Shown here piece by piece: positions 46,494 through 60,299 of a stretch of DNA of 64,000 nucleotides (positions are counted from its first letter, which is position 1; each line of letters begins with the position of its first letter). The notes beneath the pieces were generated by a model, which worked only from the letters and a program-made list of their open reading frames with translations, did no database searches and was not told the DNA's origin. The stretch comes from Celeribacter naphthalenivorans (GTDB lineage Bacteria > Pseudomonadota > Alphaproteobacteria > Rhodobacterales > Rhodobacteraceae): positions 372,001-436,000 of the forward strand of contig NZ_JAIVLK010000003.1 of the NCBI RefSeq assembly GCF_020524585.1. The letters run 5' to 3'. Position numbers and translations under genes: made by a program.

Positions 46494-47978
46494 ATGAACA
46501 GCAGTTTGAAAAGCCTGATCCTCGAAACAGCGCCCGCGCGTGAGACCCGGAGCTTTGCTGATCCGGCGGCGGCGGTGGATTATCTTGAGGCGCTATATTC
46601 AGAGGCCTGTTCTTTTTTGACAGAGAAATTTTCGCTCATCGCAAGCGGGGAGGAGCCCGAGGCGCGCTATCGGGCCTATTACCCGGAAATTCGCGTGGTC
46701 ACGACATCCTATGCGACGATGGACAGCCGCCTGTCTTTCGGGCATGTGGCCAAGCCGGGCGAATATTCGACGACGATCACGCGGCCTGATCTGTTTCGCA
46801 ATTACCTGAAACAGCAGATTTCCCAAATCCTGCGCAACCACGGCGTGATGGTGCAAATCGGCATTTCCGACACGCCGATGCCGGTGCATTTCGCTGTCGC
46901 CAATGACGAGAACATCACCGTGCCGCAGGAAGGTGCCATGGCCTATCCGCTGCGCGATATTTTCGATGTGCCGGATTTGACGACGACCCACGATGATATT
47001 GTGAATGGCTTCGACTACACCCATGCGGATGGCTCTGGCGCCTTGGCGCCGTTCATGGCGCAGCGCATCGATTATTCGCTGGCCCGCCTGTCGCATTACA
47101 CCGCGACGGATGCCTGTCATTTCCAGAACCACGTATTGTTCACCAACTACCAGTTCTATGTCTCCGAATTCGAAGCCTATGCACGCAGCCAATTGGCCGA
47201 TCCTGAGAGCGGCTACACCAGCTTTGTCTCCACCGGGAATGTCGAGATCACTTCGGCAGACGAAGACATCCCGCCGACCGCGAAGATGCCACAGATGCCG
47301 ACCTATCACCTGAAACGCGCGGACGGATCGGGGATCACGCTTGTGAACATTGGTGTCGGGCCGTCGAATGCGAAAACCGCGACGGATCACATCGCCGTTT
47401 TGCGGCCGCATGCCTGGATCATGGTCGGCCATTGCGCCGGGCTGCGCAATTCGCAGCGGCTCGGGGATTTCGTCCTCGCGCATGCGTATCTGCGTGAGGA
47501 TCATGTGTTGGATGACGACCTGCCGGTCTGGGTGCCAATCCCGGCTTTGGCGGAAATTCAGACCTCTCTCGAAGACGCGGTCGAGCAGGTGACTGAACTC
47601 GAAGGTTATGAGCTCAAGCGCATCATGCGGACGGGGACGGTGGCGACGATTGACAACCGCAACTGGGAGCTGCGCGATCAATCCGGTCCGGTGCAGCGCC
47701 TGTCGCAATCGCGGGCCATTGCGCTCGATATGGAAAGCGCGACCATCGCGGCGAACGGGTTTCGGTTCCGCGTGCCCTATGGGACGCTCCTTTGTGTGTC
47801 GGATAAACCGCTCCATGGTGAGTTGAAATTGCCGGGCATGGCGTCGGATTTCTACAAATCACAGGTCTCTCGTCACCTGTTGATTGGTATTCGGTCGATG
47901 GAATTGCTGCGCGATATGCCGATTGAACGTATCCATAGCCGGAAATTGCGCTCTTTCGAGGAGACGGCCTTCCTGTAA
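46494..47978 (+). CDS. amn: AMP nucleosidase
   Basis: Cleaves AMP to adenine and ribose-5-phosphate, which helps control the adenylate pool. The 494-residue product has an N-terminal AMP-nucleosidase-specific domain (1 to about 190) and a C-terminal nucleoside-phosphorylase fold (about 240-490: GVGPSNAKTATDHIAVLRPHAWIMVGHCAGL, then ALDMESATIAANGFRFRVPYGTLLCVSDKP). I chose ATG 46494 with AAAGGA upstream; a longer frame into the divergent region is not credible. The close match over the whole length makes this one sure. Confidence 0.95.
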   Translation: MNSSLKSLILETAPARETRSFADPAAAVDYLEALYSEACSFLTEKFSLIASGEEPEARYRAYYPEIRVVTTSYATMDSRLSFGHVAKPGEYSTTITRPDLFRNYLKQQISQILRNHGVMVQIGISDTPMPVHFAVANDENITVPQEGAMAYPLRDIFDVPDLTTTHDDIVNGFDYTHADGSGALAPFMAQRIDYSLARLSHYTATDACHFQNHVLFTNYQFYVSEFEAYARSQLADPESGYTSFVSTGNVEITSADEDIPPTAKMPQMPTYHLKRADGSGITLVNIGVGPSNAKTATDHIAVLRPHAWIMVGHCAGLRNSQRLGDFVLAHAYLREDHVLDDDLPVWVPIPALAEIQTSLEDAVEQVTELEGYELKRIMRTGTVATIDNRNWELRDQSGPVQRLSQSRAIALDMESATIAANGFRFRVPYGTLLCVSDKPLHGELKLPGMASDFYKSQVSRHLLIGIRSMELLRDMPIERIHSRKLRSFEETAFL

Positions 47979-50632: not shown

Positions 50633-51400
50633 TTAAACGTGAATGATCTGGCACTGATGCGCGTCGCAGGCCTGCTTCACATCCTCCGGAATCTGGGCGC
50701 CGGTCACGACGATGTCGTGGTCCCAGAGGCTCCCGTGCTGACAGGCCAAATCCAGATCATATTTTTCGCGATCCATCACCAGAATCGTCGTTTTGGCGCA
50801 TTTGGATATGGCTTTACGGGCGGTCACTTCCTCGGAGTTGTAATCCATCACGGCGCCGCTGGAGGACAGCCCGCCACAGCTGAAAATCGCGTAATCGACG
50901 CGATAGTTCGCAAAGAACTCAAGCGAGGCCACACCGATCAAATCGAGATCGCGCATCCGCACCGTGCCGCCCGCCATTTCCACCGAAACCCCCGGCGCAG
51001 ATTGCAGGGCGCAGACGGCGTGGATGCTATTGGTGGCGACGAAAAGGTTTTCACGAGACGCCAACAGGCGCGCGCAATGTTCGACCGTCGTCCCGGTGCC
51101 CAAGGCCACGCGGCTGCCATTCGGGATCAGGTTTTTGACGGCGAGGGCGATCCGTTGTTTTTCTTGCCGTGAAAGGCTTTCACGCGGCAGGTAGCCGATG
51201 TTTTCGCTTTGCTGTCTGAGGCGCGCGGCGCCATTGCGCCGTTGGACCAATCCTGCCTCATCCAGATCGCGCAAATCCGTGCGAATGGTTTGAACCGACA
51301 CGCCCAGTCGCTCAGACAGCTCCGCCGCAGAGAGCTCTCCGTGTTCCGACAAAAGCGCGATGATGCGATCGCGCCGCTCCCCCAAATCCAAACGCCTCAT
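50633..51400 (-). CDS. DeoR-family transcriptional regulator
   Basis: A 255-residue regulator. The N-terminal DeoR helix-turn-helix (5-60: RRDRIIALLSEHGELSAAELSERLGVSVQTIRTDLRDL) is followed by the DeoR C-terminal sensor domain, a sugar-phosphate-isomerase-like fold (LGTGTTVEHCARLL, then VDYAIFSCGGLSSSGAVMDYNSEEV). Proteins of this group usually sense a phosphorylated sugar or related metabolite. ATG 51400 has AAGGA upstream. It is divergent from the ABC importer at 51581 and is therefore its probable regulator. Confidence 0.9.
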   Translation of the reverse strand: MRRLDLGERRDRIIALLSEHGELSAAELSERLGVSVQTIRTDLRDLDEAGLVQRRNGAARLRQQSENIGYLPRESLSRQEKQRIALAVKNLIPNGSRVALGTGTTVEHCARLLASRENLFVATNSIHAVCALQSAPGVSVEMAGGTVRMRDLDLIGVASLEFFANYRVDYAIFSCGGLSSSGAVMDYNSEEVTARKAISKCAKTTILVMDREKYDLDLACQHGSLWDHDIVVTGAQIPEDVKQACDAHQCQIIHV

Positions 51401-51532
51401 GATTTTCCTTCGAAAATGACTTTGAGTTTCGGCAAGGTTAGGCCGCTTCGTTTTTTCGCGCAATATCATTAAAAAAGTTACGTTTTTGTCACAAAATTGT
51501 TGCGCGGCGCGGAAATAAGACCCCTGTCCAAT

Positions 51533-51548
51533 GCTTTCGAACGAAAGC
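51533..51548. promoter_or_regulatory. Candidate DeoR-family operator
   Basis: GCTTTCG-AA-CGAAAGC is a perfect 7+7 dyad around AA, located 32 bases before the ABC importer start. TTCG repeats also occur at 51447-51457. TTTCG/CGAAA half-sites are typical of DeoR-family operators. The position fits repression of the importer operon. Confidence 0.55.
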
Positions 51549-51580
51549 GAAATCTTCAGGCCAAACCGCAGGAGAGCCCC

Positions 51581-52549
51581 ATGAAGACCGTCCTCACCAC
51601 AACCGCATTTGCCCTCATGGCCAGCACCGCCATGGCAGACACGATCACCATCTATACCTCGCAACCGAATGCCGATGCACAGCAGACGGTGGATGCGTTC
51701 ATGGCCGCCAATCCCGGCACGGAAGTCGAGTGGGTGCGCGACGGCACCACCAAATTGATGGCCCGCCTGCGCGCCGAAATCGAAGCGGGCAACCCGCAGC
51801 CCGACGTGCTTTTGATCGCCGACACCGTGACGCTCGAAGGCATGGCGCAAGAGGGTCTGTTGCACGCCTATCAATCGCCCGAAGCCACCAACTATGACGC
51901 GGCGCTCTATTCGCCGGAGGGCTACTATTACTCCACCAAGCTGATCACCACCGGCATCGTGTACAACACCGGTATTGAGACTGCGCCGACCTCGTGGAAA
52001 GACCTCGAAGACGCGTCGATCAAAGGTCAGATCGCCATGCCGTCGCCGCTCTATTCCGGTGCTGCGCTGATCCATCTTGCTACGCTCACGGGCGATCAGG
52101 ATCTTGGTTGGGACTACTACGGCAAACTCGCCGCGAATGAGGCCCGCGCTCAGGGCGGCAATGGTGGCACTTTCAAAGCCGTCGCCTCCGGTGAGAAACC
52201 CTACGGCATGGTTGTCGACTACCTCGCGATCCGCAACAAAGCGGACGGCTCTCCTGTCGACTTCGTCTTCCCCGAGGAAGGCGTGTCCTATGTGACCGAA
52301 CCGGTCGCGATCCTGTCCTCTGCCAAAAATGTCGAAGGCGCCGAGAAATTCGTCGACTTCGTGCTGAGCCAGGATGGTCAGGAATTGGTTCTCGACATGG
52401 GCTACATCCCGGCGCGTGACGGCATGGGCGTCCCCGCCGGCTTCCCCGCACGCGAAGACATCAAGCTGATGGCCTTCGACCCGGCTGATGCGCTTGCCAA
52501 TGCTGACGAGAACAAGGCGAAATTCACCGAATTGTTCGGCGTAGAATAA
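51581..52549 (+). CDS. ABC importer periplasmic binding protein (AfuA/FbpA family)
   Basis: A 322-residue exported binding protein. The signal peptide (1-19) ends MAMAD. ITIYTSQPNADAQQTVDAF opens the mature part, and LLIADTVTLEG, GQIAMPSPLYSGAAL and the hinge pattern of the iron/AfuA family follow. The adjacent tyrosine pair that binds ferric iron in FbpA is not present at the expected place (GMVVDYLAIRNK). AfuA of Actinobacillus binds hexose phosphates, so a phosphorylated ligand is plausible. AGGAG precedes the ATG. Followed by the permease with a 1-base overlap. Confidence 0.88.
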   Translation: MKTVLTTTAFALMASTAMADTITIYTSQPNADAQQTVDAFMAANPGTEVEWVRDGTTKLMARLRAEIEAGNPQPDVLLIADTVTLEGMAQEGLLHAYQSPEATNYDAALYSPEGYYYSTKLITTGIVYNTGIETAPTSWKDLEDASIKGQIAMPSPLYSGAALIHLATLTGDQDLGWDYYGKLAANEARAQGGNGGTFKAVASGEKPYGMVVDYLAIRNKADGSPVDFVFPEEGVSYVTEPVAILSSAKNVEGAEKFVDFVLSQDGQELVLDMGYIPARDGMGVPAGFPAREDIKLMAFDPADALANADENKAKFTELFGVE

Positions 52550-54252
52550 TGCAATCCGCCCTGCAAAAAGGAGGCAGCCGGTCCGAATCCCGGCTGCTCT
52601 CCGTCATTCTGATCCTCGCGCTTTGCCTGACACTCGCACCCGTTTTGCGGCTTTTCATCGAGGGCGTCACGGATCAGGGTGTGCCCTCTCTGTCGCTTGC
52701 AAAATCCGTTCTTGCACAGGGTTCGACCCTAAATGCACTCAAACATTCGCTGATCACAGCGGGTCTGGGCACCTTGGTCTCCGTGGTTTTGGGAGCGGCT
52801 TTTGCCTTTCTCGTCGCGCTCACCGATTTGCGCGCCAAGGCGGCTTTGGTCTTTTGCCTGATGATCCCGATGATGATCCCGCCACAGATCACGGCGCTGT
52901 CCTGGACACAAATCATGGGTCCGTCTTCGGTCCTCTTGAAGACCCTCGGCATCGCCCCGCCGCTTGGCGCGCCGCAGCCGCTTTATTCGCCCGAAGGCAT
53001 CATTCTGCTGCTCGGCATTCAGCATATGTCGATCATCTTTCTGACGCTTCGTGCGGGGCTGCGCGCCATTCCGCAAGAGGTGGTCGAAGCCGCTCGGATC
53101 AGCGGCGCGCGGGGCTTTCGGACGTGGTGGCAGGTGGTGATGCCACTGACGTTGCCGAGTCTCGCCGCGGGCACCGCCATCACCTTTGTCACAGCGCTTG
53201 GCAATTTCGGCATCCCTGCGATGCTGGGCATTCCGGCGGGCTATGTGACGCTGCCGACGCTGGTCTATCAAAAGCTCGCGGGCATGGGCACGACAGTGCT
53301 GGCTGAGGTTTCCGTGCTGGCGATGCTGATCGGCGCGGTGGCGATTGTCGGCATTCTCCTGCAACGATTTTTCCAAGGGCGGCAGAACGTGTATCTCGTC
53401 GGCTCGACCTCCCGCCCGCTGGCTATTCCGCTGGGTTCGGCACGTTTGCCGGTCGAAATCCTGCTCTGGGCTGTGGTCTTCGTGATCCTCGTCCTGCCGA
53501 TGTTTGGTCTCTTGGCGACCTCTTTGGTGCCTGCCTATGGCGTGCCTTTGCGCTTTGACACGATGACGTTTGTCTCATGGGGCGAAGTTCTGTTTCGCCA
53601 ACCCGTGACGGCGCGCGCCTTTGCCAATTCGTTCAGCCTCGCGCTGGGGGCCGCTGTCGTTTTGATGATCATCTGCCTGCCGCTGGCGTGGCTCATGGAG
53701 CGCCATCCCACGCGCCTTTCGCGCCTTTTCGACAGTTTGCTCGACCTGCCTTATGCGCTTCCCGGCGTGGTCCTCTCGATCGCGATGATCCTTCTGTTGA
53801 TCAAGCTGCCTTTCACCGACGCGACACTCTACGGCACAATCTGGATCATCTTCCTTGCCTATCTCGCCCGTTTCTTCGCGGTGATGTTCCGCCCGGTTCA
53901 GGCCAGCCTGAAACAGCTCGACCCGGCCATGGCCGAGGCCGCGCAATCGGTGGGAGCGGGTCTGTTTCAGCGCCTGCGTGATGTGATCCTGCCGCTGTCC
54001 GCTCCGGCGGCAGCAGCCGGAGCAATCCTCGTCTTTCTCACCGCGTTCAACGAACTCACCGTCTCCGCGCTGTTGTGGTCTTCGGGCACCGAGACCCTTG
54101 GCGTGGTGATTTTCAATCTCGACGACAGCGGCGAAACCGCGATGGCGAGCGCTCTGGCGATGACCATCGTCTTCGTGGTCATGGCGCTTATGACCCTAAT
54201 CCAGCTGTTTTCGCGTCGTTTCCCGAAAGGAGTGGTCCCATGGCAGACATAA
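52549..54252 (+). CDS. ABC importer permease (AfuB/FbpB-like, two fused halves)
   Basis: A 567-residue inner-membrane permease with about twelve segments in two homologous halves, each with a BPD_transp_1 EAA coupling loop: EAARISGARGFRTWWQVVMPLTLPS (about 183-208) and EAAQSVGAGLFQRLRDVILPLSAPA (about 464-489). A single such chain forms the whole channel, as in FbpB. ATG 52549 overlaps the binding-protein stop (TAATG), and its 3' end overlaps the ATPase gene by 13 bases. Confidence 0.93.
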   Translation: MQSALQKGGSRSESRLLSVILILALCLTLAPVLRLFIEGVTDQGVPSLSLAKSVLAQGSTLNALKHSLITAGLGTLVSVVLGAAFAFLVALTDLRAKAALVFCLMIPMMIPPQITALSWTQIMGPSSVLLKTLGIAPPLGAPQPLYSPEGIILLLGIQHMSIIFLTLRAGLRAIPQEVVEAARISGARGFRTWWQVVMPLTLPSLAAGTAITFVTALGNFGIPAMLGIPAGYVTLPTLVYQKLAGMGTTVLAEVSVLAMLIGAVAIVGILLQRFFQGRQNVYLVGSTSRPLAIPLGSARLPVEILLWAVVFVILVLPMFGLLATSLVPAYGVPLRFDTMTFVSWGEVLFRQPVTARAFANSFSLALGAAVVLMIICLPLAWLMERHPTRLSRLFDSLLDLPYALPGVVLSIAMILLLIKLPFTDATLYGTIWIIFLAYLARFFAVMFRPVQASLKQLDPAMAEAAQSVGAGLFQRLRDVILPLSAPAAAAGAILVFLTAFNELTVSALLWSSGTETLGVVIFNLDDSGETAMASALAMTIVFVVMALMTLIQLFSRRFPKGVVPWQT

Positions 54253-55280
54253 ACATCACGTCTTTGGGCAAAGTTTTCGCAGGCACCCCTGCGCTTCAGG
54301 ACATCACAACCCGGTTCGAAGACGGCGAATTCATCGCGCTTCTTGGCCCGTCGGGATGCGGCAAGACCACACTTTTGCGTCTGCTTGCGGGCTTTGACAT
54401 GCCCAGTTCGGGCACGATCCGTATCGGTGCGCGGGACGTGGCGACGGCGACCAATATGGTCCCGCCCGAAGAGCGCAACATCGGCTTTGTGTTCCAAAGC
54501 TACGCGCTCTGGCCGCATATGTCGGTGCGTCGTAACGTGTCCTATCCACTCGAAATCCGCAAACTGACGAAACCTGAGATCGCCGCGCAAACGGACGCCG
54601 CATTGGCCGCCACCGGCCTGACCGAGTACGCAGATCGCATGCCCTCCGATCTGTCGGGCGGTCAGCGCCAAAGGGTGGCGTTGGCACGCTGTCTGGTCTC
54701 TGCACCGGACGCGGTGTTGCTGGATGAGCCGCTCGCCAATCTCGACGTCGCGCTGCGCGCGTCGATGCAGGCGGTGTTCACCGATTTCCACAAACGCACC
54801 GGTGCGACCATGGTTTATGTGACCCATGATCAGGCCGAAGCCATGGCGATGGCGGATCGCATCGCGGTGATGAATCAGGGTCTAATCCAGCAGTTTGATA
54901 CGCCACAGACGCTTTACGAACGTCCCAAAAACCGCTTTGTCGCCGAATTTGTCGGGCGTGGCACGGTGGTGCCTGTGAAGGCGGTTGAGCAAGGTGAAAA
55001 CCAGCTGCACGCACATGTTCTGGGCGCTCGCATCGCCGTTGAAAGCGAAGCGCAGTCCCAAGTCAGCCATGTCTGTCTTCGTCCTGAAAACCTAGCGATT
55101 TCCGAGACCGGTGATCTGCGCGCCAAGGTGGCGCGAGTCACCTATCTGGGTGGCAAATACCTCCTCGAAACCGTGTCCTCCTGCGGCACCCGTTTGCTGG
55201 CGGAGACGCGGGCGAAATTCGACGTGGGTGCGCAGCTTGGGCTTACCATCACCACCCCCTGGGCGTTTTCCGAGGATTAA
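54240..55280 (+). CDS. ABC importer ATPase (AfuC/FbpC-like)
   Basis: A 346-residue ATPase. Walker A is GPSGCGKTT, Q-loop FVFQSYALWPHMSV, signature LSGGQRQRVALAR, Walker B LLDEPLANLD and H-loop VTHDQAEAM. A C-terminal TOBE/OB regulatory part (about 240-346) follows. I chose ATG 54240, with AAAGGAG upstream, over in-frame starts further inside the permease gene. The next gene starts at the base after its stop. Confidence 0.94.
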   Translation: MADINITSLGKVFAGTPALQDITTRFEDGEFIALLGPSGCGKTTLLRLLAGFDMPSSGTIRIGARDVATATNMVPPEERNIGFVFQSYALWPHMSVRRNVSYPLEIRKLTKPEIAAQTDAALAATGLTEYADRMPSDLSGGQRQRVALARCLVSAPDAVLLDEPLANLDVALRASMQAVFTDFHKRTGATMVYVTHDQAEAMAMADRIAVMNQGLIQQFDTPQTLYERPKNRFVAEFVGRGTVVPVKAVEQGENQLHAHVLGARIAVESEAQSQVSHVCLRPENLAISETGDLRAKVARVTYLGGKYLLETVSSCGTRLLAETRAKFDVGAQLGLTITTPWAFSED

Positions 55281-56348
55281 ATGCAAAGCGTAAGACTTCT
55301 TTCCGGCATCGGGGACAAGGGCCCCGCTTGCATGCAACTCACTATCGATGACCGCATCTGGCTTTTGGATTGCGGGTTCGGCCCCGAGGCCAATGCGCAT
55401 TTCAATCCGGAGTGGCTCAAGGGCGCCGAGGCCGTGTTCATCACCCATGACCATATCGACCATATCGGGGGGGCGTCCTATGCGGTGGAGGCGGGTTTGC
55501 CGATTTATGCGACGGCACAGACCGCCAAGTCCCTGCCGCCCGCCGCCAAGGTGCATCTGCTGCCCGAACAAGGTGACAGCCACATCCATGGCGTCAAGCT
55601 TACCACCGGGCGCAACGGTCATGCGATGGGCGGGGTTTGGATGCATTTCGATCTGGGCGAGGGTCTGTTCTATTCCGGCGATTGGTCAGAGGAATCGGAT
55701 TGGTTCCCGCTCGATCTGCCGCCGCCTGCCGCGACGGCCATTTTGGATTGCTCCTATCACCTCGACGATGTGCCTCAATCCGAGCGTTTCGCGGCGTTGG
55801 ATGCTTTGCTTGATGGGCTGCATGGCCAAGTGCTTTTGCCTGTGCCGCCATCCGGACGCGCCGGTGAAATGGCGCTCCATTTGATCCGGCGCTACGGCAT
55901 GGAAAGTGTCATGCTCGACCCGGAGTGTCAGTCCGCTTTACGTGCCGCGCTGGCCAGTCAGACCCTGAGCCCGGAGGTGCAAGAGATCGCGCCGCTTCTG
56001 AACCGTGGCCCGATGGAACAGGCGCGGTTTCTCATTTGCGACACGCCGAATGCAGATGGAGGTGCGGCTTGGGGCTATGTGCGGGCGTGGAATGAAAGCG
56101 GGCGTTTGGGTCGTGACGCGCATGTCGTTTTCACCGGTCATATGACCGCCCATGCCCGAGGAATTTGCGCGGTGCCCGGCGGGTATTTCCAGCGCTGGAA
56201 CGTGCATCCGCCGCTGCGCGATCAGATCAAAATGCTTGACCGATTGGGTGCAAAACGCTTTGCGCCGGCCTTTTGTACCCAGCCAGAGGACTATCTGGTC
56301 GAGAAACTTGGCGTGGAGATTTTCCTCCACGATCCGGTGCGGCTATGA
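55281..56348 (+). CDS. Metallo-beta-lactamase-fold hydrolase, beta-CASP-like
   Basis: A 355-residue MBL-fold protein. Metal motifs: ITHDHIDHIGG (H-x-H-x-D-H), HAMGG and FYSGDWSEES. The second half resembles the beta-CASP nuclease arrangement: AILDCSYHLDD, LPVPPSGRAGEMALHLIRR, VVFTGHMTAHARG and WNVHPPLRDQIKMLDRLGA. Beta-CASP enzymes mostly cut RNA or DNA. No signal peptide, so it acts in the cytoplasm. It starts directly after the ATPase stop and overlaps the next gene as ATGA. Function in the operon is inferred: phosphodiester hydrolysis. Confidence 0.82.
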   Translation: MQSVRLLSGIGDKGPACMQLTIDDRIWLLDCGFGPEANAHFNPEWLKGAEAVFITHDHIDHIGGASYAVEAGLPIYATAQTAKSLPPAAKVHLLPEQGDSHIHGVKLTTGRNGHAMGGVWMHFDLGEGLFYSGDWSEESDWFPLDLPPPAATAILDCSYHLDDVPQSERFAALDALLDGLHGQVLLPVPPSGRAGEMALHLIRRYGMESVMLDPECQSALRAALASQTLSPEVQEIAPLLNRGPMEQARFLICDTPNADGGAAWGYVRAWNESGRLGRDAHVVFTGHMTAHARGICAVPGGYFQRWNVHPPLRDQIKMLDRLGAKRFAPAFCTQPEDYLVEKLGVEIFLHDPVRL

Positions 56349-56884
56349 ATGGTCTGCCTGTCAGAAGTTTTTGCCTCATCCGTCATGGCGAGACCACGGC
56401 CAATGCCGATGAGATCATCGCCGGGCGCACGGATGTGTTGCTGACAGAACGGGGGCGAGATCAGGCGCGTGACCTGTCCAAACGCATGTGGCCGGAGCGC
56501 ATCGTACTCTACGCCAGTCCGATGTCGCGGGCGCGCGAGACCTGTGAATTGGCCTTTCCCAACCAGCCTTATGATCTGCATGATGGCTTGCGTGAGCGGG
56601 ATTGGGGTCTTTTTGAGGGGCGGCCCTTGAGCGAGCAGCCTGATCGCGAGGCCACGCCAGAAGAGGGCGAAAGCTGGTCCGATATGCTGTCGCGTGTGGC
56701 GCAGGCGATTGTCGAGATTTGTAACACAAGCGAGGACGCCTTGCCCGTTTTGGTCTGTCATTCCGGCGTCATCCGCGCCGCGCGGGTGCTTTGGACCACA
56801 GGGCATGTCGGCTCGCGCCCCCCAAATGCCACGCCGCTGATGTTCACGCGGTCGGGTCAAATTTTCAAGGAGACAGAGCTATGA
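56345..56884 (+). CDS. Histidine phosphatase family protein
   Basis: A 179-residue phosphatase with the catalytic RHGE motif (FCLIRHGETTANA, residues 9-21), the LTERGRDQA segment, and the second catalytic His in LVCHSGVIRAA (about 138-148). Family members remove phosphate from sugar phosphates, nucleotides or similar compounds. Start ATG 56345 overlaps the MBL stop; its own stop overlaps the HAD gene (ATGA). The coupling suggests action on the same substrate stream. Confidence 0.88.
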   Translation: MNGLPVRSFCLIRHGETTANADEIIAGRTDVLLTERGRDQARDLSKRMWPERIVLYASPMSRARETCELAFPNQPYDLHDGLRERDWGLFEGRPLSEQPDREATPEEGESWSDMLSRVAQAIVEICNTSEDALPVLVCHSGVIRAARVLWTTGHVGSRPPNATPLMFTRSGQIFKETEL

Positions 56885-57342
56885 CGAACTTCGGCAAACC
56901 CTGTGTGGTTTTCGATGTGGATGGGACTTTGGCGGAGTTCGATGCCGGGAAACTCGGGCATCTCGTGCATGGGATTGAAAAGCAATGGGATGAGTTTCAT
57001 CACGCCATGGCTGACGCGCCCTTGATTGCGCCTGTCGCCAAGCTGTTGCGCCGGTTGAAAGACAGCGGCGAGACCATCGTGATCTGTTCCGGTCGACCGG
57101 CGGGCTGGGCCGTGCATACGATGGCCTGGCTGCGTAAACATGACCTGCCGTTTGATGGCATCTATCTGCGGGCCGAGGATCAGGACGCGGCCAGTGATCC
57201 GGAGGTCAAGCGCCGGGCTCTGGCGGAGATGAAAGCCGATGGTTTGGCCCCCTGGCTCGTCATTGATGACCGCAGTTCCGTGGTGGAGGCCTGGCGCGCA
57301 GAGGGTCTTGTCTGTCTACAATGCGCGCCGGGCGATTTTTAA
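56881..57342 (+). CDS. HAD phosphatase resembling the PNKP 3'-phosphatase domain
   Basis: A 153-residue stand-alone HAD protein. Motif I is VFDVDGTLA (nucleophile Asp and Asp+2), motif II ICSGRPAGW, and motif IV LVIDDRSSVVEAWR with two Asp. The end ..GLVCLQCAPGDF closely follows the C-terminal pattern of the phosphatase domain of T4 polynucleotide kinase/phosphatase (IDDR..VVE.WR..G..C.Q.A.GDF). It lacks a kinase domain. It is last in the DeoR-linked operon and ends 3 bases before the convergent tenA. Confidence 0.85.
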   Translation: MTNFGKPCVVFDVDGTLAEFDAGKLGHLVHGIEKQWDEFHHAMADAPLIAPVAKLLRRLKDSGETIVICSGRPAGWAVHTMAWLRKHDLPFDGIYLRAEDQDAASDPEVKRRALAEMKADGLAPWLVIDDRSSVVEAWRAEGLVCLQCAPGDF

Positions 57343-57345
57343 GGT

Positions 57346-58026
57346 TTAAGCCGGATTAGACTCTATTTTCTTCCAGCCTTCGCCATTGTAGGCACTGTCC
57401 CAAAAGCGCCATTCATGCCAGCAGCTGCGCTTGAACGCATGATGCATCCGGGCGCGTGTCTCGGAACTCGCCCCGGCTGCAACGCGGTCGGTCAGCGCCA
57501 ACATGCGCGTGACGCTCTCGTCGAAGGCCTCGCCGGAATAGGTGGCGATCCACTCGGCATAGGGGTTCTCTGGGCGGCTGGTTTCAGCGATTTCCTTGCC
57601 GACATCGCGGTAAATCCAGAAGCAGGGCAAAAGCGCCGCCACGGCTTCGGGGAATTCCCCGATCGCGGCGGTGCGCAACAGGAAAGACACGTAGTGATCG
57701 CAGGCGGCTGAGACATCTGTTGCTTCAAAGCTGGCGGTCGTGATGCCGAAAAGGCCCATGTAATGGCCGTGCAACCCACGTTCGACGGCGATGGCCCCTG
57801 CGGCGGATCCGGCAAGTTGTGCCACGGCCTGTGCATCGGGGGCTTTGGCGGCGGCAAGGGACAGGGCGCGGGCGAAGCCTTCGAGGTAATGGGCGTCCTG
57901 AATGATGTAGCCTTGGAAGGTTTCCGACGGCAAACTGCCCGACGCCAATTCGCGGTTGAACGCCATGGCGTGGATTTGATCGCGCAGGGTTTGGGTCTCT
58001 TGCGCCAGCTCTTGGGTGAAAGTCAT
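57346..58026 (-). CDS. tenA: TenA-family aminopyrimidine aminohydrolase (thiaminase II)
   Basis: A 226-residue all-helical TenA protein that hydrolyses thiamine breakdown products to HMP. It has the active-site Cys in LLPCFWIYRDVG (about 133-144) and the aromatic/Glu residues of QDAHYLEGFARAL (about 43-55) and HHAFKRSCWHEWRFWDSAY near the C-terminus. The Cys marks the classical TenA_C group. Start overlaps the thiD stop (ATGA). Last gene of the riboswitch-controlled thiamine salvage operon. Confidence 0.94.
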   Translation of the reverse strand: MTFTQELAQETQTLRDQIHAMAFNRELASGSLPSETFQGYIIQDAHYLEGFARALSLAAAKAPDAQAVAQLAGSAAGAIAVERGLHGHYMGLFGITTASFEATDVSAACDHYVSFLLRTAAIGEFPEAVAALLPCFWIYRDVGKEIAETSRPENPYAEWIATYSGEAFDESVTRMLALTDRVAAGASSETRARMHHAFKRSCWHEWRFWDSAYNGEGWKKIESNPA

Positions 58027-58826
58027 GTTTGACGTCCTTGTAGGGAATAGAAGTGATGCACCGGGCCATGGCCCGCGCCGACAGACAGCTCGTCCGCGTG
58101 GGTAATGGCGGCTGTGATGTAGGATTTGGCACGTTTCGCGGCCTCAGGCAGACTCAGCCCGGCGCCAAGCCACGTGGCCAGCGCAGAGGCATAGGTGCAG
58201 CCGGTGCCATGGGTGTTTTTCGTCGCGATCCGCGTGCTTTCGAGCCAGGTTTCTCCGGCGTCCGTGACGAGCAGATCGGGGCTTTCAGCACCGCTCAAAT
58301 GTCCGCCTTTGAGCAAAACCGCCTTTGGACCAAGCGCGCGCAGGGCCTGAGCCTGTTCCCGCATGTCGTCCACAGTCTTGGCCTCGGAACAGTCGAGAAG
58401 ATCGGCGGCCTCGGGGAGGTTCGGGGTGATCACAAAGACCTGCGGAAGAAAATCGCGCAGGGCTGAGACGGCGCTCTGTTGCAACAACCGATCCCCGCCT
58501 TTCGCAACCATCACCGGGTCGAGCACCACGGGGCAGTCGATATCAGAGATGGCACCTGCCACGGTTTGCGTGATCGCGGCATCGCCCAGCATGCCGATCT
58601 TGATCGCATCAATGCGAATGTCGTCGCGAATGGCTTTGATCTGTGCTGCGATAAAGTCGGTGGGGCAAAGCTGGACGCCGGTCACACCACGGGTGTTTTG
58701 CGCGGTGAGCGCGGTGATGACGGACATCGCATAGCCGCCATTGGCGGAAATCGATTTGATGTCGGCCTGAATGCCAGCGCCGCCGGAGCAATCGGAGCCA
58801 GCGATGGTGAGAATATTCGGGATCAT
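58023..58826 (-). CDS. thiD: HMP kinase/HMP-phosphate kinase
   Basis: A 267-residue ribokinase-fold enzyme that phosphorylates HMP twice to HMP-PP. Motifs: TIAGSDCSGGAGIQADIKS at the N-terminus, VLDPVMVAKGGDRLL (about 105-120) and the catalytic region THGTGCTYASALATWLGAG (about 208-226). I chose ATG 58826, overlapping the thiE stop as ATGA; a start four codons earlier is possible. Together with ThiM and ThiE it makes thiamine phosphate from salvaged precursors. Confidence 0.96.
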   Translation of the reverse strand: MIPNILTIAGSDCSGGAGIQADIKSISANGGYAMSVITALTAQNTRGVTGVQLCPTDFIAAQIKAIRDDIRIDAIKIGMLGDAAITQTVAGAISDIDCPVVLDPVMVAKGGDRLLQQSAVSALRDFLPQVFVITPNLPEAADLLDCSEAKTVDDMREQAQALRALGPKAVLLKGGHLSGAESPDLLVTDAGETWLESTRIATKNTHGTGCTYASALATWLGAGLSLPEAAKRAKSYITAAITHADELSVGAGHGPVHHFYSLQGRQT

Positions 58827-59446
58827 GCGTCCCTCCATGCGTTGAGGAGATCGCGGCTTGCGGCCTCCATGTTGTCGGCTCGCGAGATGGCGGAAATCAC
58901 CGCCAATCCCGCGCCGCCGGAGTGTTTGATCGCTGCGGCGTCGTGATGGGTCACGCCGCCGATGGCGAGACAGGGCAGCGACGTTAGCGATACAATGCCA
59001 GCGAACCCATCGAGGCCGATGGGGGCGGCGTGATCGGGTTTCGATCCGGTCGCCCGGATCGGACCAACGCCGAGGTAGTCGACACCGGGGGGAATGGCCG
59101 CGAGCTGATCCTTGGTTTCGACCGAGAGGCCGAGGATCATGTCCGGGCCGATCCGACGCCGGATGTCGGCGGGGTTTCCGTCACTTTGACCGACGTGCAG
59201 AACCGGCGCTTTGACGGCGAGGGCCACCTCCACGCGATCATTGATCACGAGCTTGGCGCCAAGCGGCTCCAAGGCGGTCATCAAGGTCCGGGCGAGATCG
59301 GCAAACTCTGCGTCTGGCAAGGTCTTATGTCGCAGTTGCACCCATCCGGCGCCCCCTTTGGCGGCGGCGATGCTTTGGTCGATCATCGCCTCGGGCGTGG
59401 CCGGTTCGGTGATGAAACAGAGCTTCGGTATATCGAGAGCGCTCAT
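58823..59446 (-). CDS. thiE: Thiamine-phosphate synthase
   Basis: A 207-residue TIM-barrel enzyme that joins HMP-PP and thiazole phosphate. Features are AKGGAGWVQLRHKTLPDAEF near residue 30, LVINDRVEVALAVKAPVLHVGQSD (about 65-90) and YLGVGPIRATGSKPDHAAPIG (about 124-144) with the pyrophosphate-binding loop. ATG 59446 overlaps the thiM stop. The second gene of the operon. Confidence 0.95.
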   Translation of the reverse strand: MSALDIPKLCFITEPATPEAMIDQSIAAAKGGAGWVQLRHKTLPDAEFADLARTLMTALEPLGAKLVINDRVEVALAVKAPVLHVGQSDGNPADIRRRIGPDMILGLSVETKDQLAAIPPGVDYLGVGPIRATGSKPDHAAPIGLDGFAGIVSLTSLPCLAIGGVTHHDAAAIKHSGGAGLAVISAISRADNMEAASRDLLNAWRDA

Positions 59447-60234
59447 GACAGGGTGATCCTTGCGCCGTCGTTGGGCGCCTCGGGGCTCATGCCATAAAGC
59501 GCGTCGATGAAGGCGGTTTGGAAAGAGGCGGGGCCTTTGGCGTCACGGCCTGCCATCTCTCCGGCCAGCGCATAATAGGCGAGGGCGGCGACAGTGGCCT
59601 CGAACGGATCTTGGTCAACCAGAAAGGCGGCGACGATCCCGGTCAAGGAGCATCCCAGAACGGTGACGCGGGGCATCATCGGGTGGCCATTGGCAATTTC
59701 CGCGATGCGCGCACCATCGGTGACGATATCAACCGGCCCCGTGACCGCAACAACCGCACCGGTTTGGCGGGCCAGATCGCGGGCGGCGTCCTTGGCGGCC
59801 TCGACACTATCGGCGGCATCGGCGCCTTTGCCCGCTGTTTGCATCCCCGCCAGCGCCAGAATCTCAGAGGCATTGCCGCGAATGACCGTGGGTTTGCAGG
59901 CCAAAAGACGCACGCCAAGGTCGCGACGATAGCCGGTCGCACCAACGGCGACAGGATCAAAGACCCAAGGCTTCCCCAGCCGATGCGCGGTGCGCGCGGT
60001 TTCCACCATCGCCTCGGCCCAGGCGGGGGAGGGGGTGCCGATGTTGATCGTCAGGGCCTGTGCGAGGGCGGTGAATTCGGCGGCTTCCTCGCGCGCATGG
60101 ACCATGGCGGGAGAGGCGCCTGCGGCCAGCATGATATTGGCCATGACATTCATGGCGACGTAATTGGTGATGTTTTGCACCAAGGGCGCGGTTGCGCGCA
60201 TTTTGGCAAGGCTTTGACCCGGTTGGTCCATCAT
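59443..60234 (-). CDS. thiM: Hydroxyethylthiazole kinase
   Basis: A 263-residue ribokinase-like trimeric kinase that phosphorylates hydroxyethylthiazole for thiamine salvage. It has PLVQNITNYVAMNVMANIMLAAGASPAM (about 22-48), PWVFDPVAVGATGYR (about 90-105) and the catalytic-site segment VTVLGCSLTGIVAAFL (about 193-208). I chose ATG 60234, spaced from GGAGGAG; ATG 60231 and 60246 are alternatives. First gene after the TPP riboswitch. Confidence 0.95.
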   Translation of the reverse strand: MMDQPGQSLAKMRATAPLVQNITNYVAMNVMANIMLAAGASPAMVHAREEAAEFTALAQALTINIGTPSPAWAEAMVETARTAHRLGKPWVFDPVAVGATGYRRDLGVRLLACKPTVIRGNASEILALAGMQTAGKGADAADSVEAAKDAARDLARQTGAVVAVTGPVDIVTDGARIAEIANGHPMMPRVTVLGCSLTGIVAAFLVDQDPFEATVAALAYYALAGEMAGRDAKGPASFQTAFIDALYGMSPEAPNDGARITLS

Positions 60235-60299
60235 GATCTCCTCCATCGCTGGCGGGGAGATCGAAAGAGACGGCGGGTTTGGCGCTGGTGTCTCTCACG

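What the first reader, a model, noticed from the sequence alone, without database searches (positions are those of the whole stretch)
50633..57342. DeoR-regulated ABC importer coupled to three hydrolases: candidate organophosphate/nucleic-acid-fragment scavenging system
Seen: a DeoR regulator divergent from binding protein, fused permease and ATPase, then MBL, histidine phosphatase and PNKP-like HAD genes, each starting within or directly at the end of the previous one. Known: AfuA-type proteins can bind sugar phosphates; DeoR sensors bind phosphorylated metabolites; the three enzyme families break phosphodiesters and phosphomonoesters. Inference: a pathway importing a phosphorylated compound (sugar phosphate, nucleotide, cyclic or short oligonucleotide) and stripping its phosphate inside the cell. 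I know no named system with exactly this set.
Basis: partly seen in the sequence, partly recalled or inferred. Interest (0 to 1): 0.78.

Follow-up and report, generated by a model that had tools for sequence, protein, structure and literature searches.

The report
Importer with matched phosphate-removing enzymes
A seven-gene unit in a marine bacterium appears to pull a phosphate-containing nutrient into the cell and cut the phosphate off; the unit is kept together in many bacteria, but what it imports is still unknown.

Summary
In detail: a DeoR gene divergent from binding protein, fused permease, ATPase, metallo-beta-lactamase-fold enzyme (MBL), histidine phosphatase and PNKP-like HAD, each junction overlapping or abutting. 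It is a real unit: the six structural genes recur together in 31 of 33 named loci, the other two lacking only the HAD. Of 80 MBL loci, 74 have importer genes and a phosphatase beside them, but the phosphatase differs by clade: histidine phosphatase with or without HAD, HAD alone, SurE, or a Cx5R phosphatase, which suggests that phosphate removal is the selected step. The MBL is a minimal beta-CASP fold, as in RNase J and CPSF73. The binding protein's nearest solved relatives bind sugar phosphates and pyridoxal phosphate; their phosphate-side residues are partly kept, AfuA's sugar-side ones not. A palindrome lies in 46 of 50 deoR-sbp gaps. Best reading: a phosphodiester is imported, cut by the MBL, then dephosphorylated, as in Agrobacterium's acc operon but with other families. 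The ligand is unproven; 12 related importers lack the MBL, and 4 importer-linked MBL loci show no phosphatase.

The parts
50633..51400 (-). DeoR/GlpR-type repressor, divergent from the operon
   Evidence: Pfam HTH_DeoR and DeoRC; 32 of 33 named loci
51534..51547 (.). Palindrome CTTTCGAACGAAAG, presumed DeoR operator, upstream of the sbp start codon
   Evidence: TTTCGNNCGAAA in 46 of 50 deoR-sbp gaps; position. Binding not tested
51581..52549 (+). Periplasmic binding protein, AfuA/P5PA-like
   Evidence: Best PDB sequence match 4r72-4r75 (AfuA), 5.8e-24; P5PA 6wce 1.1e-19
52549..54252 (+). Fused two-domain ABC permease
   Evidence: BPD_transp_1, two stretches
54240..55280 (+). ABC ATPase with TOBE domain
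   Evidence: ABC_tran, TOBE_2
55281..56348 (+). Minimal beta-CASP metallo-beta-lactamase-fold hydrolase, proposed phosphodiesterase
56345..56884 (+). Histidine phosphatase (branch 1), alpha-ribazole-phosphatase-like
   Evidence: His_Phos_1 8.7e-33; RHGET
56881..57342 (+). HAD phosphatase of the PNKP type
   Evidence: HAD_PNKP 7.6e-23; PDB matches Pnkp1 4xrp and polynucleotide kinase 1ltq

Best explanation
A catabolic import unit for a small phosphodiester. The binding protein captures it, in part through phosphate-side residues shared with AfuA; the permease and ATPase import it whole; the beta-CASP enzyme cuts the diester in the cytoplasm to a phosphomonoester; the histidine phosphatase and HAD (elsewhere SurE or a Cx5R phosphatase) remove the phosphate; the DeoR repressor, sitting on the palindrome before sbp, is released by the phosphorylated intermediate. 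Shown: gene order, conservation, folds, motifs, different phosphatase folds in different clades, conserved palindrome. Inferred: ligand class, order of reactions, repressor site and inducer. A sugar- or polyol-containing diester is somewhat likelier to me than a nucleotide.
For: Importer genes plus a phosphatase at 74 of 80 MBL loci. On the MBL tree the partner labels need 11 changes; several are gains or losses of the HAD or loci without a phosphatase, but the SurE, Cx5R and HAD-only partners mark separate lineages while MBL and importer stay. MBL and binding-protein identities track each other, r = 0.94 over 800 sampled pairs, which common descent alone could also give. The MBL is a full-length beta-CASP fold, a fold with many solved nucleases. 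The binding protein is closest to two binders of phosphorylated ligands; T56, S159, G160 (AfuA S37, S148, G149) in 78 of 78 MBL-linked proteins. Palindrome in 46 of 50 gaps. Regulators: DeoR-type at 50 and SorC-type at 4 of 80 loci, the SorC with a Sugar-bind domain; LacI and ROK types by eye at L075 and L142. Two cassettes adjoin UgpB-like importers with their own phosphoesterase-family genes (L076, L083). The acc operon shows the same logic experimentally (PMC4526662, passages).
Against: No ligand or activity measured. Four loci with an intact MBL and importer genes have no phosphatase found (L119, L120, L142, L152). Twelve genomes have a related binding protein (56-62% identical) and permease without the MBL, yet the same residues at the compared pocket columns, so the ligand may not need the MBL. 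Of seven AfuA phosphate-side residues only S148 and G149 are identical and S37 becomes Thr; G38, T150 and G185 are changed (Thr/Ser, Ala, Asn) and T60 is ambiguous. The binding-protein model failed (pLDDT 39). The SurE-partnered MBLs sit on a very long branch and read THP instead of W-x-V-H-P at the last motif; L139 and L140 read WNVHL. For 26 of 80 loci neither a DeoR nor a SorC gene was found.
Confidence: 0.45

Rival explanations
1. The import ligand is a nucleic-acid fragment in the strict sense: a 2',3'-cyclic nucleotide, a dinucleotide or short oligonucleotide, cut by the beta-CASP enzyme as a ribonuclease and cleaned by nucleotidase-type phosphatases. A special case of the best explanation.
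For: Beta-CASP fold of RNase J and CPSF73; HAD of the polynucleotide-kinase phosphatase family, with matches near the cut-off to the RNA-repair model HAD_SAK_2 at L118 and L139; SurE partner, a 5'/3'-nucleotidase family, at 4 of 80 loci.
Against: The two characterised relatives bind hexose/heptose phosphates and pyridoxal phosphate (PMC4546632, PMC8427247, passages); regulators are of sugar-sensing types; no nucleoside gene recognised in the cassette itself; SurE and histidine phosphatases are promiscuous (recalled).
Confidence: 0.2
2. The ligand is a phosphomonoester (sugar phosphate or similar) that only needs the phosphatases; the MBL does a different step, such as opening a lactone or trimming another bond.
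For: AfuA and P5PA bind monoesters; sister importers have no MBL.
Against: The MBL persists where the phosphatase differs, though loci were chosen by the MBL; it has the whole beta-CASP fold, and the 50 entries listed in the structure comparison are of that kind.
Confidence: 0.22
3. Import of iron or phosphonate, with hydrolases of unrelated function carried along.
For: Automatic names: iron permease, Fe(3+)-binding protein, 2-aminoethylphosphonate permease; PhnS2/PhnU2/PhnT2 matches below cut-off.
Against: PhnS2, PhnU2 and PhnT2 scores lie far below their curated cut-offs (138 vs 393, 174 vs 593, 309 vs 458 bits); no C-P cleavage gene in the unit; 74 of 80 MBL loci keep a phosphatase.
Confidence: 0.06
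4. A gate used mainly against or by antimetabolites (nucleotide-like Trojan-horse compounds), hydrolases acting in detoxification.
For: AccA imports agrocin 84 as well as its nutrient (PMC4526662, passages); the MBL is also found on 71 plasmid records.
Against: An importer dedicated to a toxin makes little sense without a nutrient role; DeoR control fits catabolism (both inference).
Confidence: 0.05

Closest known systems
acc operon (agrocinopine/agrocin 84) of Agrobacterium
   Same: Repressor whose effector is the sugar phosphate made by the operon's own enzyme, ABC importer for a phosphodiester, phosphodiesterase AccF, putative phosphatase AccG (PMC4526662, passages)
   Different: Here a beta-CASP enzyme, histidine/HAD/SurE/Cx5R phosphatases and an AfuA-type importer with fused permease; from recall, Acc uses an oligopeptide-type importer, a GDPD-like AccF and an inositol-phosphatase-like AccG
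AfuABC hexose/heptose-phosphate importer
   Same: Nearest solved binding proteins; part of the phosphate-side residues kept
   Different: Sugar-coordinating H205 and E229 not kept; the passages read mention no hydrolase genes
P5PAB pyridoxal-phosphate importer
   Same: AfuA-type binding protein for a small phosphorylated ligand (PMC8427247, passages)
   Different: Only distantly alike (1.1e-19); its ring contacts were not compared here; no ATPase gene directly downstream in that operon
Ugp glycerol-3-phosphate/glycerophosphodiester importer with UgpQ (recalled)
   Same: ABC importer coupled to a diester hydrolase
   Different: Different families throughout; two UgpB-like operons lie beside the cassette at L076 and L083

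Membership tests
AfuA sugar-phosphate binders | Sugar-coordinating H205, D206, E229 | tested here: not met
   MAFFT columns Y214, L215, V238 in the window; over 78 linked proteins the H205 column is F/Y/A/S, the E229 column V/I, the D206 column L/M/T with D in 5. The phmmer pairing places D206 at D213, so D206 alone is uncertain; H205 and E229 fail in both
AfuA sugar-phosphate binders | Phosphate-side residues S37, G38, T60, S148, G149, T150, G185 | tested here: inconclusive
   S148 and G149 identical and S37 to Thr in 78 of 78; G38 to Thr/Ser, T150 to Ala, G185 to Asn; T60 ambiguous between D81 and T82
2-aminoethylphosphonate importer (PhnS2/PhnU2/PhnT2) | NCBIfam equivalog cut-offs | tested here: not met
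   138 vs 393, 174 vs 593, 309 vs 458 bits
Beta-CASP nucleases | MBL plus beta-CASP fold over the full length | tested here: met
Beta-CASP nucleases | HxHxDH and later motif residues (D30, H114, D134, D156, H287, H309) | tested here: met
   Invariant in 19 aligned members, which do not include the SurE-partnered group; HxHxDH in 79 of 80, W-x-V-H-P in 73 of 80 loci. That these are the beta-CASP motif residues is recalled
Beta-CASP nucleases | Nuclease activity | not testable with these tools
   needs enzyme assay
PNKP-type HAD phosphatases | Pfam HAD_PNKP above cut-off, DxDGT | tested here: met
   81.7 vs 27.6 bits; motif in 46 of 46 HADs
acc operon | AccF/AccG family homologues | not tested
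   compared by logic only; families of AccF and AccG recalled

The most novel reading that the evidence does not exclude
A beta-CASP enzyme, from a family known for RNA and DNA cutting, has been turned into a catabolic phosphodiesterase for an imported small molecule, and defines a widespread, mobile family of organophosphate-scavenging units in which four unrelated phosphatase folds take turns at the last step.
Probability: 0.38. Interest if true: 0.75.

Novelty: new variant of a known kind. Interest (0 to 1): 0.6.

Why it matters
If true, it adds an unrecognised route by which bacteria, many of them marine, take up organic phosphorus compounds whole rather than cleaving them outside, and gives the minimal beta-CASP fold a metabolic role. 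In the two annotated plasmid stretches with such names the genes are called iron, spermidine or phosphonate importers and ribonuclease or MBL, which hides the unit. The conserved palindrome and the clade-specific phosphatases make it directly testable.

Tried and rejected
AlphaFold model of the binding protein: pLDDT 39, not used; pocket claims rest on sequence alignment only. Operator regulon in the own genome: CTTTCGNNCGAAAG occurs at two places; the second lies between the end of one long ORF and the end of another that faces it, so no second target was found; the shorter 12-mer is not above its control (11 vs 15). Sigma-70 promoters: 3 found against 1.7 expected, not informative. The small opposite-strand ORFs were ignored as overlapping noise. 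Apparent 700-residue fusions at L119/L120 were read as out-of-gene frame extensions (by eye). Dropped before counting: the 70 order genomes with only short MBL matches of E 1.5e-5 or worse; G566 and G643 (profile 15-86 only). 'No phosphatase found' means no hit over 100 bits to my four profiles on the same strand within 2.5 kb, plus a look at neighbouring ORFs at L119, L142 and L152 and Pfam for two L119 genes (LepA and a glycosyltransferase); other phosphatase families could be missed. The SurE and Cx5R profiles were built from 3 and 2 sequences. In one search the 16 proteins labelled sister include L080, L115, L116 and L117, which are a truncated-MBL locus, an importer whose genome has a decayed MBL elsewhere, a contig end, and a displaced binding protein; only L103-L114 (12) are importers without MBL. 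Literature: in searches (1 of 1 listed; 20 of 28; 1 of 1; 10 of 10; 8 of 27) no listed title or abstract opening describes this gene set; the library is partial and the unlisted papers were not seen. PMC4546632, PMC8427247 and PMC4526662 were seen as passages only. Searches gave nothing used.
Full report
What is there. Searches confirm the cassette at 50633-57342 with the stated families and tight junctions. The genome is Celeribacter-like: by MBL identity (98%) the nearest named loci are Celeribacter sp. HF31 and PS-C1. Matches to the window's flanking genes aroC and tenA within the fetched flanks (up to 8 kb) occur in only three of the 33 named loci, all Celeribacter (L031, L059, L060), so the cassette seems to sit at different places elsewhere. 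One search finds the MBL on 71 plasmid records, 27 of them Phaeobacter at 84-85% identity; the one I opened (L149) carries the full unit.

Is it a unit? In the 33 named loci returned by an MBL query importer genes, MBL and histidine phosphatase are together in 33, deoR is there in 32, HAD in 31; in two of them (L037, L045) the permease match is in two pieces. In a draw of 292 genomes of the order, 112 match at E 1e-3, but 70 of these are short hits around HxHxDH (E 1.5e-5 or worse) and were set aside; 42 have a family-level match (E 1.5e-14 or better). Of the 42: 24 close ones all have permease, ATPase and histidine phosphatase in the 4-kb locus, 21 the HAD; by the coordinates the binding protein lies about 4 kb away in 23 and on another contig in one, G247. 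Thirteen more distant ones all have the whole importer, with histidine phosphatase in 12 and a Cx5R phosphatase in 1. Of the last five, three have importer and SurE; one (L080) has a truncated MBL beside an importer; one (L077) is an orphan that has lost HxHxDH. So each of the 40 intact MBLs in that draw comes with importer genes and a phosphatase. Outside the order, 16 loci were fetched: 15 have binding protein and permease, one ends at a contig edge (L123); 12 have a phosphatase, three with importer genes have none found (L119, L120, L142). The query was the MBL, so these counts say what goes with the MBL, not the reverse.

The reverse direction. A search with the binding protein in the same 292 genomes finds 56 at E 1e-60: 40 are those above; 12 (L103-L114) have a binding protein 56-62% identical and a permease, with no MBL, and no hit to my phosphatase profiles, in the 13-19.5 kb fetched, and no family-level MBL in the genome; 4 are cut, decayed or displaced cases (G185, G205, G246, G264). 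The sister importers are the main result against a strict coupling.

Phosphatase partners. The 80 distinct MBL loci are the 33 named ones, 27 from the order draw, the 16 outside it and 4 plasmid stretches. Partners: HAD+histidine phosphatase 44, histidine phosphatase 19 (one, L086, without a binding protein nearby), HAD alone 2, SurE 4, Cx5R phosphatase 5, none 6 (L077, L119, L120, L123, L142, L152). On a tree of 78 MBLs (L077 and L123 left out) the labels need 11 changes; the SurE and HAD-only groups are each one side of a branch, the Cx5R group needs 2. Some of the 11 are gain or loss of the HAD, or loci without a phosphatase, so true changes of phosphatase fold are fewer. Several joins involve long branches, flagged by the program. 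Catalytic motifs: HAD 46 of 46, SurE 4 of 4, Cx5R 5 of 5, histidine phosphatase RHG[EQ]T 58 of 63; the other five read RHGAT, RHGRT (three) and RHAQS. Pfam supports SurE clearly (6.2e-47) and the Cx5R family only below its curated cut-offs.

The binding protein. Nearest solved sequences are 4r72-4r75 (AfuA), 8x1a and P5PA 6wce. From passages of PMC4546632 and PMC8427247, S37, G38, T60, S148, G149, T150 and G185 surround the phosphate in AfuA, and H205, D206 and E229 hold the sugar. In 78 MBL-linked proteins and 16 others, T56, S159, G160, A161 and N194 are invariant at the S37, S148, G149, T150 and G185 columns, whereas the sugar residues are replaced. Reading: the phosphate end is partly kept, the other end is different. 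Two alignments disagree by two residues near D206 and by one near T60.

Regulation. TTTCGNNCGAAA occurs in 46 of 50 deoR-sbp gaps, including three loci of another family in the class; L122, L139 and L140 lack it and L141 has a three-base spacer. It ends about 20-35 bases before the sbp start in most, 34 in the window; five loci have a second copy nearer deoR. This position suits a repressor of the operon. In the own genome the 14-base form is at only one other place, not promoter-like, so control looks local. No binding data.

Which ligand? For a nucleotide-like ligand: beta-CASP fold, PNKP-type HAD, SurE. For a sugar-type ligand: AfuA kinship, regulators of the DeoR and SorC types and by eye LacI and ROK, and by eye a glycosidase-like ORF near the L142 cassette. 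For diesters in general: two cassettes adjoin UgpB-like importers carrying a CpdA/SpdA-like phosphoesterase (L076) or an Exo_endo_phos-family gene (L083), two loci only and all below the NCBIfam cut-offs. I commit to a phosphodiester at 0.45, with the strict nucleic-acid-fragment version listed as a rival at 0.2.

Comparison. The acc operon of Agrobacterium (PMC4526662, passages) works by the same steps: importer of a sugar phosphodiester, phosphodiesterase releasing a sugar phosphate that is the repressor's effector, and a putative phosphatase. The window's unit may work like acc; I do not file it as a member, since the families differ (those of AccF and AccG from recall, not compared here). 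Membership in AfuA as a hexose-phosphate importer fails on the sugar residues; membership in the phosphonate importer families fails on NCBIfam cut-offs.

Verdict. The finding is sound, and its conservation test came out in its favour from the MBL side; its ligand claim stays open. New variant of a known kind, interest 0.6.

Noticed in passing
L103-L114: Twelve genomes carry a sister importer (binding protein 56-62% identical to the window's) without MBL or recognised phosphatase beside it, the nearest ATPase gene on the opposite strand; its own role is unknown.
   Followed up: partly
L077:9044-10141 and L080:9172-9489: Decayed MBL copies: one an orphan without HxHxDH, one truncated next to an intact importer.
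   Followed up: partly
L150 (Enterobacter cloacae plasmid P2): A five-gene form (importer, MBL, histidine phosphatase) on an IncF plasmid from a hospital isolate, annotated as iron, phosphonate and spermidine transport plus ribonuclease.
   Followed up: no
L076:12831-16894 and L083:10274-15550: UgpB-like ABC operons with a phosphoesterase-family gene directly beside the cassette.
   Followed up: partly
L037:5262-6960 and L045:5263-6960: The permease match falls into two reading-frame pieces in two otherwise complete cassettes; broken gene or assembly error.
   Followed up: no
window 57346-60246 (-): TenA with neighbouring ORFs that look by eye like thiD, thiE and thiM: a thiamine salvage cluster next door.
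   Followed up: no
window about 46500-47978 (+): An ORF that looks by eye like AMP nucleosidase, a few genes before the cassette.
   Followed up: no
L087:10166-16512: By eye, mevalonate-pathway genes follow the HAD in one genome, seemingly unrelated.
   Followed up: no
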